Assembly: GCA_021803425.1 (NCBI GenBank)
Contig: JAJZLN010000014.1
Location: forward strand, 1 to 46,743
Source: Microcaldota archaeon
GTDB lineage: Archaea > Micrarchaeota > Micrarchaeia > Micrarchaeales > CABMGC01
Length of the DNA: 46,743 nt
Direction: 5' to 3'
Shown here in pieces: positions 8,805-29,110 of this stretch. The translations under genes and the position numbers were made by a program. Position 1 is the stretch's first letter, and every line of letters begins with the position of its first letter. The notes under the pieces were generated by a model, which ran no database searches, was not told the DNA's origin, and saw nothing but the letters and a program-made list of their open reading frames with translations.

Positions 8805-9191
8805 ATGGCATTGATGGAAAAAATAAGCAGGTATTATTTCATTGTAATGGCGCTTATAGGCGTATCGATATTCTTCGGCCAGGTGGCTGCCCAGTCCTCT
8901 GCCGTTGCCGTTACAACTTCCACGTTGTGTGGCATAATAGGCGGAGTGCGATCGGTGGTGGGAGTCATAGCGCTTGTGCTTTTCATAGTTGGTGGAGCAC
9001 TTTATGCAGTAGCGCACATGATGCCTGCTGCAGGAAATCTCAGGGGAAACGTTCAGGGATGGTCCTTGGGAATGATAGTTGGAGGGATAGTCGGGCTAAT
9101 AATAGTGCTGATTGCTCCTGCTATAATAGGTGCAATAGCCGGTGTCTCGCTTAGCGGATCCGGATCTATAACAAGTCCAAGCTGCATCTGA
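8805..9191 (+). CDS. VirB2/TrbC-like pilin (signal peptide plus two hydrophobic helices)
   Basis: 128 aa; N-terminal signal-like segment ending QVAAQSS, then TM-short polar loop-TM (VIALVLFIVGGALYAVAHMMPAAGNLRGNVQGWSLGMIVGGIVGLIIVLIAPAIIGAI), the classic VirB2/TrbC architecture. Confidence 0.72.
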   Translation: MALMEKISRYYFIVMALIGVSIFFGQVAAQSSAVAVTTSTLCGIIGGVRSVVGVIALVLFIVGGALYAVAHMMPAAGNLRGNVQGWSLGMIVGGIVGLIIVLIAPAIIGAIAGVSLSGSGSITSPSCI

Positions 9192-9206
9192 TAAATTTCA
9201 TGCGGA

Positions 9207-9228
9207 ATGCAGCATGATTATGCTGCAT
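9207..9228 (+). repeat. Perfect 9-bp inverted repeat (ATGCAGCAT-gatt-ATGCTGCAT), RNA hairpin just after the pilin stop
   Basis: Read directly; 4-nt loop; 15 nt downstream of the TGA at 9189-9191. Confidence 0.85.
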
Positions 9229-9249
9229 CAAAGCTCCTATGGTTAATTA

Positions 9250-26509: not shown

Positions 26510-26519
26510 GGGTGCAATC

Positions 26520-26675
26520 ATGGCTTATTCTGTAAACATAATGAAGAAATATCAGCACGTCAGGGTGTATTCCATAAAGAAAAGCGTGAAGGGGAACCAG
26601 AACGAGATATCCAGGATAATCGAATCATTGATAAACAGGTATCTGCAGAAGAGAGCGGAGAAGCAGGAGGCCTGA
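26520..26675 (+). CDS. Small basic protein (~51 aa)
   Basis: ATG-TGA ORF MAYSVNIMKKYQHVRVYSIKKSVKGNQNEISRIIESLINRYLQKRAEKQEA exactly filling the gap between neighbouring same-strand genes; not in the supplied ORF track. Confidence 0.6.
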   Translation: MAYSVNIMKKYQHVRVYSIKKSVKGNQNEISRIIESLINRYLQKRAEKQEA

Positions 26676-26680
26676 ATTCT

Positions 26681-29110
26681 ATGAAATTTCCAAATATGAC
26701 GCTTAAAAACGTACCGATATCCTATCCTATCTGGAAAAAGAATCATTACATAAAACTTGCAGCAATCGCATTTGCTGTGCTGATAGTCATATTTATCCTT
26801 ATGTCCCTTTACATAAGGAGCGTAATATCAAGCATACCTGTGCCTGTGCCCTCTCCTACTGGCATGATACTTGCAAATTTCTCTGAAGTATCCCAGGGGG
26901 TGCTTACCTTTAATTTCGCATCACAACTTGTAGAGTACGCACGCATACATTATACCGAATCTAATGCAACTTCAATGAACGCTTCAATAACTGTATTCAA
27001 GTCTAATCCGATACTTCCGATATACTTGGTCGATACGCAAAGCTACTGTGAGCAGTGCTTCATACCATCAACGCTATTCGGATACCTGAATTCATCTCTT
27101 TCATCAGATGGATTGGTGCTGAACCGCTCAAGCTTCAGGCTGATAAATATAAATGAGCTTTCATCCGTGCCAAAGGGGGCAATAGTAATAATTGCATCGG
27201 GGCTTATGCCCAATATTCTTCTGCCAGGTGAGACGTATTTTGAGCAGTGCCCGAGATATACAAACGTAACACTGCTTTCTTTGCTATCAGCCGGCGACAC
27301 CGTCTTATATGTTGGCAGGAATCTCTCAACTTCAGTTTCGTGCAGCGGGCAGGTGATATTGACCTCCAACCAGACTCTATCATCACTCGGAGCAATTGCA
27401 GACTGGTCTGCGCCACAAAACACTCTTGGGGTGAACGGCACCACGAATCCGCTGTATCTGAAAAATCAGACTTTCGAATATACTGCTGCACCGGGCTATG
27501 GAACTTCATCATACATATCAATCCTGAATGGCACATTCGTTGTTCTGGGCAACTATCCATCGGCAGGATGGAACGACAGCGCATTTCTTCTCTCATCCGA
27601 CATATCAAAAGTCATACTGTCAAGGTACTGGGCACCTGTGCTGGCATCAGGCGCTATTCCTGCTTCAGCTCCGTCAAATTCCGGGAATTTCACCATCTTT
27701 ACGCTAAACAATGTCCTCCCCAACATTCCAAGTTCCGCAGGCATTATAAATGATTCATACTCGCTGGTTCAGGTGCATATGTCAAACGGACACCGCTATT
27801 CAAACAAGGAAATACTGCTGAAATATAAATTCCTCCAGAATGGCACTCTAAGCATACCTCCAATCGTTGGACAGTCGCAGCAGGTGCAGATAGAATCCCA
27901 GATATCTGATTCCGCAGCCCGCACCATAATAGGCCATATCCAGATCTATAACCAGAACTTCAGCGTTGCGCCGCAAAGCCCGATACCTATAGGGCAAATC
28001 GGCGCATCGATAATAATAACTAGCACATCATTTTTACTTCCTAGCGGATATTACATTGCATCTTTAATCGACCAGAACGGAGTGCAATATTCCTCTGCAT
28101 TGACATACGTCCAGAATTCTACCATTGTGCCTGTAAAAGAGGATTTCAAGAACGCCTCCTTTATTTTTTCGGCAACGAGCAACGCCTCTCAAGTTAACGG
28201 AGTGCAATACCAAATCAACATAAACGGTGCATACAGCGAGAATGGGACTGCGAGCGGCGGAGTAATAAATTATTATCTCCCCAAAGGCACAGCCTTAAGC
28301 TATGGTTCTGGATCATTCAATGTAAGGATGCTCAATGATTCATATTCTATTCCATATTCTTACACTAATCCTGGTATCATAATACCTCCTCTGTACATAG
28401 AGTTTGCCATAGCTGCGATAGTAATTGTGGTGCTTAACAAGGTGCTTGTGCCTTCTTCATCCGATCTTTATTACATAGACGTGCCAGAAATTTCCCATAC
28501 TAAGATGGAGCATGTAAAAGAATCAGCGGAAACAATAATATCCGTATTTAACAAGGTAAATGACTTTTATAAGTGGAGATATGTGCCCCTTACCGCAGAG
28601 GAGATAAAGTCTGGAATCAGCAGCAATGTAAAATACGGAAATTCGCGTGTATTCATAACACTTAGAAATACCCATTCAATACTCAATAAGCTTGTAAAGG
28701 ACGGTGTTCTTGTTTCAACAGACGAATACTTTGCGCCAAAAAGTTGGATTTCAGATTCGGGGCATAGCATTGATTTTCTTGTCATATACAGGAAGATTAG
28801 GGATTTCTGCATAGCAAACGGAATGATGTCAACCGAGATGGACACTGCGACAAAGTGGGATATGGTGGTCACGAGAAAAGGCACGCAGAAATACATAAAG
28901 ATATATTCTGAAAATTTCAAGATAAGGGATATAGAGATAAACAAGAACATAAGGACGTTTGTGGTTTTCCTGAATGAAGACAACAGGCTTGATTTCATGG
29001 ACAAGCTGAGGAAGTCTCATGGCAAGAACGCCGAGATACTCAAGCTTGCGATAAAGTATGGTAATGTAAAGCTCACAGATTCTGAGAATCTGGATGTGCT
29101 CAGCATCTGA
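26681..29110 (+). CDS. Large bitopic/two-TM protein: big extracytoplasmic domain and cytoplasmic C-terminal domain
   Basis: TM near residue 30, Ser/Asn-rich ectodomain, TM at IEFAIAAIVIVVLNKVLV, charged cytoplasmic tail of ~230 aa. Confidence 0.75.
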   Translation: MKFPNMTLKNVPISYPIWKKNHYIKLAAIAFAVLIVIFILMSLYIRSVISSIPVPVPSPTGMILANFSEVSQGVLTFNFASQLVEYARIHYTESNATSMNASITVFKSNPILPIYLVDTQSYCEQCFIPSTLFGYLNSSLSSDGLVLNRSSFRLININELSSVPKGAIVIIASGLMPNILLPGETYFEQCPRYTNVTLLSLLSAGDTVLYVGRNLSTSVSCSGQVILTSNQTLSSLGAIADWSAPQNTLGVNGTTNPLYLKNQTFEYTAAPGYGTSSYISILNGTFVVLGNYPSAGWNDSAFLLSSDISKVILSRYWAPVLASGAIPASAPSNSGNFTIFTLNNVLPNIPSSAGIINDSYSLVQVHMSNGHRYSNKEILLKYKFLQNGTLSIPPIVGQSQQVQIESQISDSAARTIIGHIQIYNQNFSVAPQSPIPIGQIGASIIITSTSFLLPSGYYIASLIDQNGVQYSSALTYVQNSTIVPVKEDFKNASFIFSATSNASQVNGVQYQININGAYSENGTASGGVINYYLPKGTALSYGSGSFNVRMLNDSYSIPYSYTNPGIIIPPLYIEFAIAAIVIVVLNKVLVPSSSDLYYIDVPEISHTKMEHVKESAETIISVFNKVNDFYKWRYVPLTAEEIKSGISSNVKYGNSRVFITLRNTHSILNKLVKDGVLVSTDEYFAPKSWISDSGHSIDFLVIYRKIRDFCIANGMMSTEMDTATKWDMVVTRKGTQKYIKIYSENFKIRDIEINKNIRTFVVFLNEDNRLDFMDKLRKSHGKNAEILKLAIKYGNVKLTDSENLDVLSI

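What the first reader, a model, noticed from the sequence alone, without database searches (positions are those of the whole stretch)
8805..29110. Type IV secretion/DNA-transfer-like machine with unusual composition
A ~20 kb same-strand locus combines a VirB2/TrbC-like pilin, six VirB6-like membrane proteins, two VirB3/VirB4-N-like proteins, a VirB4/TraC-type motor ATPase and at least six uncharacterised partners. Sequence shows the ATPase motifs and TM architectures directly. Established knowledge: VirB2+VirB6+VirB4-type sets define conjugative T4SS and the archaeal Ced/Ted DNA-import systems (CedA/CedA1/CedB). Inference: this is a divergent chromosomal version for DNA or protein exchange, perhaps relevant to a small-genome archaeon dependent on other cells.
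Basis: partly seen in the sequence, partly recalled or inferred. Interest (0 to 1): 0.92.

Follow-up and report, generated by a model that had tools for sequence, protein, structure and literature searches.

The report
Six-fold VirB6-type transfer machine in Micrarchaeota
This is a chromosomal relative of the bacterial conjugation and archaeal DNA-import machines, kept in most sequenced members of a phylum of tiny symbiotic archaea, in which the single channel protein of known systems is replaced by a fixed set of six different copies, which suggests a transfer pore built from six non-identical parts.

Summary
Window 8805-29110 carries a same-strand operon: VirB2-type pilin, 6-TM protein, six VirB6/CedA-type proteins (a-f), two VirB4-N-like membrane proteins, a VirB4/CedB-type ATPase and four partners. 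The genome is a 0.88-Mb micrarchaeon. The order is kept in 19 of 20 relatives; the ATPase is in 90 of 97 good phylum genomes. ATPase and VirB6-like genes co-occur in 106 of 107 genomes; 10 genomes lack both. NCBIfam's CedA model hits only these array regions in 61 whole genomes. The ATPase is closest to CedD, TraC and CedB. Every array checked has exactly six genes, including genomes with two arrays, and positions are orthologous across the class. A compact one-copy unit (pilin, B6, B4N, ATPase) lies elsewhere in the genome. No relaxase (one family tested) or VirD4 was found. Best reading: a domesticated Ced/Ted-like T4SS with a hetero-oligomeric VirB6 base, probably importing or exchanging DNA. 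Cargo, direction and the hetero-oligomer are inferred. Novelty: new variant of a known kind.

The parts
8805..9191 (+). VirB2/TrbC/CedA1-type pilin (signal-like N-terminus, two TM helices, R-containing loop, two conserved Cys)
   Evidence: TrbC E=6e-4; family 7/17 TrbC and 5/17 PF18895; alignment
11147..11884 (+). m245: conserved 6-TM accessory protein between pilin and array
   Evidence: present in the same place in 16 of 20 fetched relatives; in the rest not seen within the fetched stretch; 6 TM
11948..13249 (+). B6a: VirB6/CedA-type polytopic protein, array position 1
   Evidence: paralogy; A6 profile; tree
13246..14475 (+). B6b: VirB6/CedA-type, position 2
14472..16127 (+). B6c: VirB6/CedA-type, position 3
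16135..17304 (+). B6d: VirB6/CedA-type, position 4; place of the NCBIfam CedA match (16819-17088)
17301..18398 (+). B6e: VirB6/CedA-type, position 5
18403..19530 (+). B6f: VirB6/CedA-type, position 6, most conserved; AF2 model top PDB hit TrwI/VirB6
21840..22682 (+). B4Na: two TM helices plus soluble domain, proposed VirB3/VirB4-N equivalent
   Evidence: paralogue of B4Nb; conserved place
22690..23511 (+). B4Nb: paralogue of B4Na; model best TM-score to R388 VirB4
23518..25029 (+). VirB4/CedB/TraC-type motor ATPase without its own N-terminal domain
25032..25328 (+). s98: stand-alone paralogue of ATPase residues 421-497
   Evidence: hhalign 97%; conserved next to the ATPase
25321..25695 (+). 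zn124: CxxC...CxxC zinc-ribbon-like domain plus C-terminal membrane segment(s)
   Evidence: conserved Cys pattern, conserved place
25721..26509 (+). cc262: N-domain, coiled coil, C-terminal winged-helix-like segment (inferred from sequence)
   Evidence: related gene in the one-copy locus
26681..29110 (+). big809: TM-anchored protein with large probably extracellular part and cytosolic C-domain; conserved last gene of the operon
   Evidence: found downstream in 8 of 8 relatives tested
9250..11106 (+). GT618: 12-TM protein, seen mainly in own family; probably accessory or passenger
   Evidence: found in part of the relatives only
19626..21737 (+). basic703: highly basic variable protein, not a core part
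   Evidence: orthologue in place only in same-genus relatives

Best explanation
A domesticated, chromosomal type IV secretion/DNA-transfer machine of Micrarchaeota, related to the archaeal Ced/Ted DNA-import systems. Proposed working: the pilin is inserted in the membrane (signal peptide probably removed near residues 29/30), levered out and stacked into a short tube on a base made of VirB6/CedA-type subunits. A cytoplasmic motor drives pilin extraction and nucleic-acid translocation. In this motor the VirB4 protein is split: the ATPase is separate, and B4Na/B4Nb supply the membrane anchor and N-domain. Six different B6 proteins replace the one VirB6/CedA of known systems, most likely as one hetero-oligomeric base (one of each) rather than six separate machines. 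The wHTH-like cc262 and zinc-ribbon-like zn124 may feed or select the substrate. Likely task: import or exchange of chromosomal DNA with other cells. Shown: gene content, order, six-fold orthology, phylum-wide retention, co-occurrence, sequence links of pilin, B6 and ATPase to T4SS/Ced families. Inferred: assembly, direction, cargo, hetero-oligomer.
For: Pilin: TrbC and T4SS_pilin matches. Channel: NCBIfam CedA is the best NCBIfam match among 43 B6 proteins (1.2e-5, one member); searched over 61 whole genomes, its 18 hits in 16 genomes all lie in B6 genes or in the array region upstream of the ATPase, and among 14 control genomes only Sulfolobus acidocaldarius rings. AF2 model of B6f: top PDB hit TrwI/VirB6. 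ATPase: CedD 2e-19, TraC-F 3e-17, CedB 4e-17 ahead of HerA 7e-15; hhalign to VirB4 95%, aligned to its C-terminal half, and to the two DUF87 ATPases of pNOB8 97%. B4Nb: highest TM-scores in its list are R388 VirB4 chains of 7o41/8rtd. Same module in one-copy form: pilin, B6, B4N, ATPase on C19 and in relatives. Co-occurrence 106/1/0/10, Fisher 1e-13, though not phylogenetically independent. Six distinct orthologous positions, always six genes per array. Not seen in 2.9 million viral contigs.
Against: B6 and B4N do not match R388 VirB6/VirB4 profiles or pNOB8 proteins by hhalign (about 0-2%), so those identities rest on one curated model with weak scores, low-significance structure matches and gene context. 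No VirD4 over cut-off, no relaxase of the one family tested, and no VirB8/9/10 matches in the locus. Known VirB6 rings are pentamers (PMC9259494), so six subunits in one ring do not fit the known symmetry. No expression, localisation or transfer data.
Confidence: 0.72

Rival explanations
1. Same machine, but an exporter: it delivers protein or DNA from the micrarchaeon into its archaeal host, as protein-secreting T4SSs do; the six B6 proteins with extracytoplasmic insertions and big809 serve host contact.
For: Large soluble insertions in some B6 genes of other families (up to 1143 aa); five VirB6 paralogues with extensions in Rickettsia and four in Anaplasma belong to host-directed T4SSs (PMC2653234, PMC7648143); big809 is conserved; Micrarchaeota are host-dependent and filaments are seen at host contacts (PMC8975820).
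Against: Closest ATPase models are the DNA-import ATPases CedD/CedB and conjugative TraC; no effector genes recognised; the paper on host contacts suggests the filaments come from the host (PMC8975820).
Confidence: 0.3
2. The six B6 proteins do not share one complex: each makes its own homo-oligomeric pore or acts at a different assembly step or with a different partner.
For: Hetero-oligomer is not shown; known VirB6/DotA assemblies are homo-pentamers (PMC9259494, PMC12857230); five in a ring plus one with another role would also fit.
Against: Always the complete set of six in fixed order in every array checked, even when the array is duplicated or unlinked from the ATPase; alternative pores would be expected to vary in number.
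Confidence: 0.4
3. A conjugative plasmid or integrated element (selfish DNA) rather than a host system.
For: The parts are those of conjugation machines; Mia14 islands were called likely conjugative elements (PMC5498576).
Against: ATPase retained in 246 of 296 genomes, with TopoVI-B next door in 7 of 8 relatives tested; no hit to relaxase PF03432; not in viral contigs, only distant matches in plasmids.
Confidence: 0.05
4. A HerA-type DNA repair or defence ATPase next to unrelated membrane genes (surface-protein export).
For: DUF87/HerA is the best Pfam match of the ATPase and HerA chains are the best PDB sequence hits.
Against: CedD/TraC/CedB models score better; a separate HerA-like protein exists in the genome; tight co-occurrence with pilin and CedA-like genes.
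Confidence: 0.04

Closest known systems
Ced (CedA, CedA1, CedB, CedD, CedE; Sulfolobales) and Ted (TedA, TedB, TedC; Thermoproteales) DNA-import systems
   Same: Chromosomal set of VirB2-type pilin, VirB6/CedA-type channel protein and VirB4/CedB-type ATPase without relaxase; ATPase best matches CedD/CedB models; CedA model matches B6; pilin with signal-like start as in TedC (PMC9905601).
   Different: Six CedA-type genes instead of one (two with CedE in Saccharolobus, PMC11868833); VirB4 N-domain is a separate gene in two copies; no match over NCBIfam cut-offs; extra conserved s98, zn124, cc262, big809, m245; phylum Micrarchaeota.
Rickettsiales rvh T4SS (rvhB6a-e; four VirB6 in Anaplasma)
   Same: Tandem divergent VirB6 paralogues next to VirB4 in a host-dependent small-genome organism; duplicated VirB4-type component (PMC2653234, PMC7648143).
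   Different: Five or four VirB6, full VirB8-10/VirD4 set and an outer membrane; here six, no such subunits recognised, archaeal.
R388 / MPF_T and MPF_FATA conjugative T4SS
   Same: Pilin, VirB6, VirB3-VirB4 core; B6f model resembles TrwI; ATPase aligns to the VirB4 C-domain.
   Different: No relaxase (PF03432), no VirD4 over cut-off; VirB6 is a homo-pentamer there (PMC9259494).
Patescibacteria T4SS (MPF_FATA-derived)
   Same: Phylum-wide T4SS in ultra-small host-dependent cells (PMC12102498).
   Different: Bacterial, different components; a six-fold VirB6 array was not among the passages read.

Membership tests
Ced/Ted DNA-import system | VirB2/CedA1-type pilin gene in the locus | tested here: met
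   TrbC 7/17, T4SS_pilin 5/17 members; topology
Ced/Ted DNA-import system | CedA/TedA (VirB6-type) channel protein | tested here: inconclusive
   CedA model hits in 16 of 61 genomes lie only in the B6 array, AF2 top hit TrwI; but below curated cut-off and no hhalign match to the R388 VirB6 profile
Ced/Ted DNA-import system | CedB/CedD/TedB VirB4-type ATPase with TM and N-domain | tested here: inconclusive
   ATPase domain closest to CedD/TraC/CedB, below cut-offs; TM and N-domain only as separate genes B4Na/B4Nb, weak structural match to VirB4
Ced/Ted DNA-import system | Imports DNA | not testable with these tools
   needs a transfer assay
Bacterial conjugative T4SS | Relaxase and VirD4 coupling protein | tested here: not met
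   PF03432 none; PF02534 only weak matches to the HerA-like protein on C24. Other relaxase families not searched
Bacterial conjugative T4SS | VirB8/VirB9/VirB10 scaffold | tested here: not met
   no hhalign match for the families compared with R388 single sequences, a weak test
T4SS superfamily (VirB2 + VirB6 + VirB4 core) | The three core components encoded together and co-occurring | tested here: met
   with the VirB6 identity resting
HerA-NurA repair | ATPase closest to HerA, next to NurA | tested here: not met
   no NurA-like gene seen in the operon family scans
Hetero-oligomeric VirB6 base | All six B6 in one particle | not testable with these tools
   inferred from invariant six-gene arrays

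The most novel reading that the evidence does not exclude
A type IV transfer machine whose VirB6/CedA base is an obligate hetero-hexamer of six non-identical subunits, fixed early in Micrarchaeota from a one-subunit ancestor still seen in the compact locus and in family f17, in the way MCM2-7 replaced a homohexamer. This asymmetric pore would differ from every known VirB6 pentamer.
Probability: 0.4. Interest if true: 0.9.

Novelty: new variant of a known kind. Interest (0 to 1): 0.78.

Why it matters
How DPANN symbionts exchange molecules and genes with their hosts is an open question; filaments at Micrarchaeum-host contacts have been imaged without an assigned machine (PMC8975820), and the Mia14 paper lists only type IV pili among filament systems (PMC5498576). 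This locus supplies a concrete, phylum-wide candidate in cultivable organisms (it is in the complete genome of Ca. Micrarchaeum sp. A_DKE). The six-subunit array also gives a natural test of VirB6 stoichiometry and of how a symmetric pore becomes hetero-oligomeric, because one-copy and six-copy versions occur side by side in one genome.

Tried and rejected
hhalign of B6 and B4N against R388 VirB2-11/VirD4 and pNOB8 proteins: no match except for the ATPase. Sequence-profile search of B6f, B4Nb and pilin in PDB: nothing. Pfam on 43 B6 and 20 B4Nb proteins: nothing of T4SS kind. NCBIfam on pilins: only unrelated weak hits. Conjugative-element reading: rejected by phylum-wide retention and lack of relaxase. 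HerA repair reading: rejected by model ranking and co-occurrence. One apparent nine-gene array (L124) is a six-gene array with three genes split into two ORFs each, read as assembly frameshifts. ATPase tree with outgroups: long branches, so the order of one-copy and six-copy clades is not resolved. The only genome-contig scan returned contigs labelled Micrarchaeota, Marsarchaeota or Mancarchaeum plus one unnamed archaeon (80 of 331 shown), so presence outside the phylum is untested.
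Full report
WHAT IS THERE. The window is contig C6 of an 880,901-base genome (33 contigs, 93% complete). Its relatives in GTDB are labelled Candidatus Micrarchaeota (some Marsarchaeota or Mancarchaeum), including the complete genome of Candidatus Micrarchaeum sp. A_DKE. On the + strand from 8805 to 29110 lie, in order: pilin; GT618; m245; six polytopic proteins B6a-B6f; basic703; B4Na; B4Nb; ATPase; s98; zn124; cc262; big809. Within the core (B6a-f; B4Na-cc262) genes overlap by 4-8 bp or are 2-25 bp apart. 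The left flank is a divergent minus-strand pilus-type locus (T2SSE-type ATPase and two TadC-like proteins); the right flank is a convergent TopoVI-B gene.

CONSERVATION. BLASTP of the window proteins against 20-kb regions of 20 relatives from two families showed the same core genes in the same order and strand in 19 of 20 (pilin and m245 were not seen within the fetched stretch of a few). In the 20th (G048) the array is intact but elsewhere, with B4Na and B4Nb also together elsewhere. The ATPase is present in 246 of 296 phylum genomes, 90 of 97 high-quality ones, at about 55-80% identity over full length in the listed hits. big809 and cc262 were found in 8 of 8 downstream regions tested, TopoVI-B in 7 of 8. 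GT618 and basic703 are patchy, so the core is pilin, m245, B6a-f, B4Na, B4Nb, ATPase, s98, zn124, cc262, big809.

PARALOGY. Profile-profile comparison (hhalign) shows the six B6 families to be homologous to each other (96.7-99.2%), B4Na to B4Nb (97.5%), and s98 to ATPase residues 421-497 (97%). The B6 consensus contains a shared motif, P-FL--G--LR--PFTR--GG--IA--IG, which lies in the CedA-matching stretch of B6d.

IDENTITY OF THE PARTS. Pilin: TrbC/VirB2 in 7 of 17 members and T4SS_pilin PF18895 in 5 of 17. ATPase: NCBIfam ranks CedD 2e-19, TraC-F 3e-17, CedB 4e-17, VirB4-like CD1110 1e-15, then HerA 7e-15; none reaches its cut-off. hhalign puts it on the C-terminal half of VirB4 at 95%. B6: Pfam finds nothing, but NCBIfam CedA is the best hit among 43 B6 proteins, 1.2e-5 in one member. 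When that CedA model is run over 61 whole genomes, 18 hits in 16 genomes appear; by coordinates each lies in the array region about 4.5-9 kb upstream of the ATPase, or on contigs that carry B6 genes (G010). Of 14 control genomes only Sulfolobus acidocaldarius rings. The AF2 model of B6f (pLDDT 77) has R388 TrwI/VirB6 (7o3v_G) as first of 350,542 PDB chains, with probability 0.84 but E 0.19. B4Nb (pLDDT 80) has its highest TM-scores, 0.35 and 0.32, with R388 chains 7o41_A and 8rtd_V; 7o41_A is TrwK/VirB4 and 8rtd also contains it. Against this, hhalign of B6 or B4N with R388 VirB6/VirB4 families and pNOB8 proteins gives nothing. So the VirB6/CedA assignment is moderate, and the VirB4-N assignment is weak-to-moderate and leans on gene order. 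A split VirB4 has a parallel in Ced, where CedB and CedD N-domains each cover a different part of the VirB4 N-domain (PMC11868833).

A ONE-COPY VERSION. The same genome has a compact locus on C19 (minus strand): pilin 14314-14679, B6 13284-14309, B4N-like 12561-13280, ATPase 11456-12568, cc262-like 10807-11541. Relatives have it too (L059, L060, L061, L094); in G048 its B6 frame is flagged with two in-frame stops in the genome search. In family f17 (G099) a single pilin-B6-B4N-ATPase unit carries an ATPase of the main clade. This independent occurrence of the four parts together, in the same order, is the best contextual evidence that they form one machine.

ALWAYS SIX. In the order, genomes have typically seven B6 genes (6+1); in many other families 13-18 matches. 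Reading the arrays gene by gene gave six tandem B6 genes in 13 of 13, in three f11 arrays, in 19 of 19 order arrays, and in 22 of 23 further complete arrays with the exact order abcdef; the 23rd is the same six with split ORFs. These sets overlap in part. Families f3, f5, f6 and f8 have two six-gene arrays, unlinked from the ATPase in the regions read. A tree of 178 B6 proteins needs 10 label changes to separate the six positions and the singles (minimum 6; shuffled mean 118), so position n in one array is generally orthologous to position n in others. Support is modest for positions 1 and 4, and long branches are present. The six-fold set therefore probably dates to before these families split, and no array examined has five or seven. 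I take this as evidence for six non-interchangeable subunits of one assembly. This is an inference: VirB6 in R388 is a homo-pentamer (PMC9259494), and Rickettsia has five paralogues (PMC2653234).

CO-OCCURRENCE. Of 117 genomes searched for B6, 107 have it; 106 of these have the ATPase at E<=1e-40 and none of the 10 B6-negative genomes appears among the ATPase matches (Fisher 1e-13). Relatedness makes the true significance lower; the losses fall in about five families.

FUNCTION. No relaxase of PF03432, no VirD4 over cut-off, no relative in IMG/VR contigs by this scan, only distant plasmid matches: not a mobile element's own conjugation system. The nearest functionally known relatives import chromosomal DNA (Ced/Ted; PMC9905601, PMC11868833). 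DNA import or exchange is therefore the most likely task (about 0.5), with export to the host next (0.3). Micrarchaeota carry genes acquired from Thermoplasmatales (PMC5498576, PMC8975820), and thin filaments are seen at contacts (PMC8975820), but whether these are this machine is unknown and the authors lean to a host origin.

LITERATURE. Searches for Micrarchaeota with type IV secretion or VirB4 found no description of this locus; the Mia14 paper lists only type IV pili among filament systems. The library holds only open-licence PMC papers, so earlier mention elsewhere cannot be excluded.

VERDICT. The new points are the phylum-wide core status, the invariant six-member orthologous VirB6/CedA set, the split and duplicated VirB4 N-part, and the one-copy sister locus.

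Noticed in passing
G000 contig C19:10807-14679 (L057): Second, one-copy T4SS-like locus (pilin, B6, B4N, ATPase, cc262-like) in the same genome.
   Followed up: yes
window 3255-8614 (-): Divergent archaeal type IV pilus-type locus: FlaI/TadA-type ATPase, two TadC-like membrane proteins (one with a weak UpsF match), and a wHTH-like coiled-coil protein directly facing the T4SS operon.
   Followed up: partly
window 41608-46584: Carboxynorspermidine decarboxylase (5e-149) and synthase-like (5e-126, below cut-off) next to aspartate kinase and aspartate-semialdehyde dehydrogenase: an aspartate-semialdehyde-based (nor)spermidine route in one cluster, which I recall as mainly bacterial.
   Followed up: partly
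L078, L082, L084, L088 (other families): One of the two six-gene arrays has B6 proteins with large insertions (680-1143 aa in some), resembling the extended VirB6 proteins of Rickettsiales.
   Followed up: no
L080:11173-16095, L083:10993-14013, L086:10996-14124: Very large ORFs (about 1000-1640 aa) directly beside the unlinked arrays; function not examined.
   Followed up: no
window 8805-9191 and family: The pilin has two invariant or nearly invariant cysteines (C42, C127 in window numbering), suggesting a disulfide in the mature pilin.
   Followed up: no
window 2-3232: Large repetitive ORFs with repeated LYxEG-type segments, possibly a LamG-like surface protein broken over two frames; NCBIfam gives no match for the first.
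   Followed up: no
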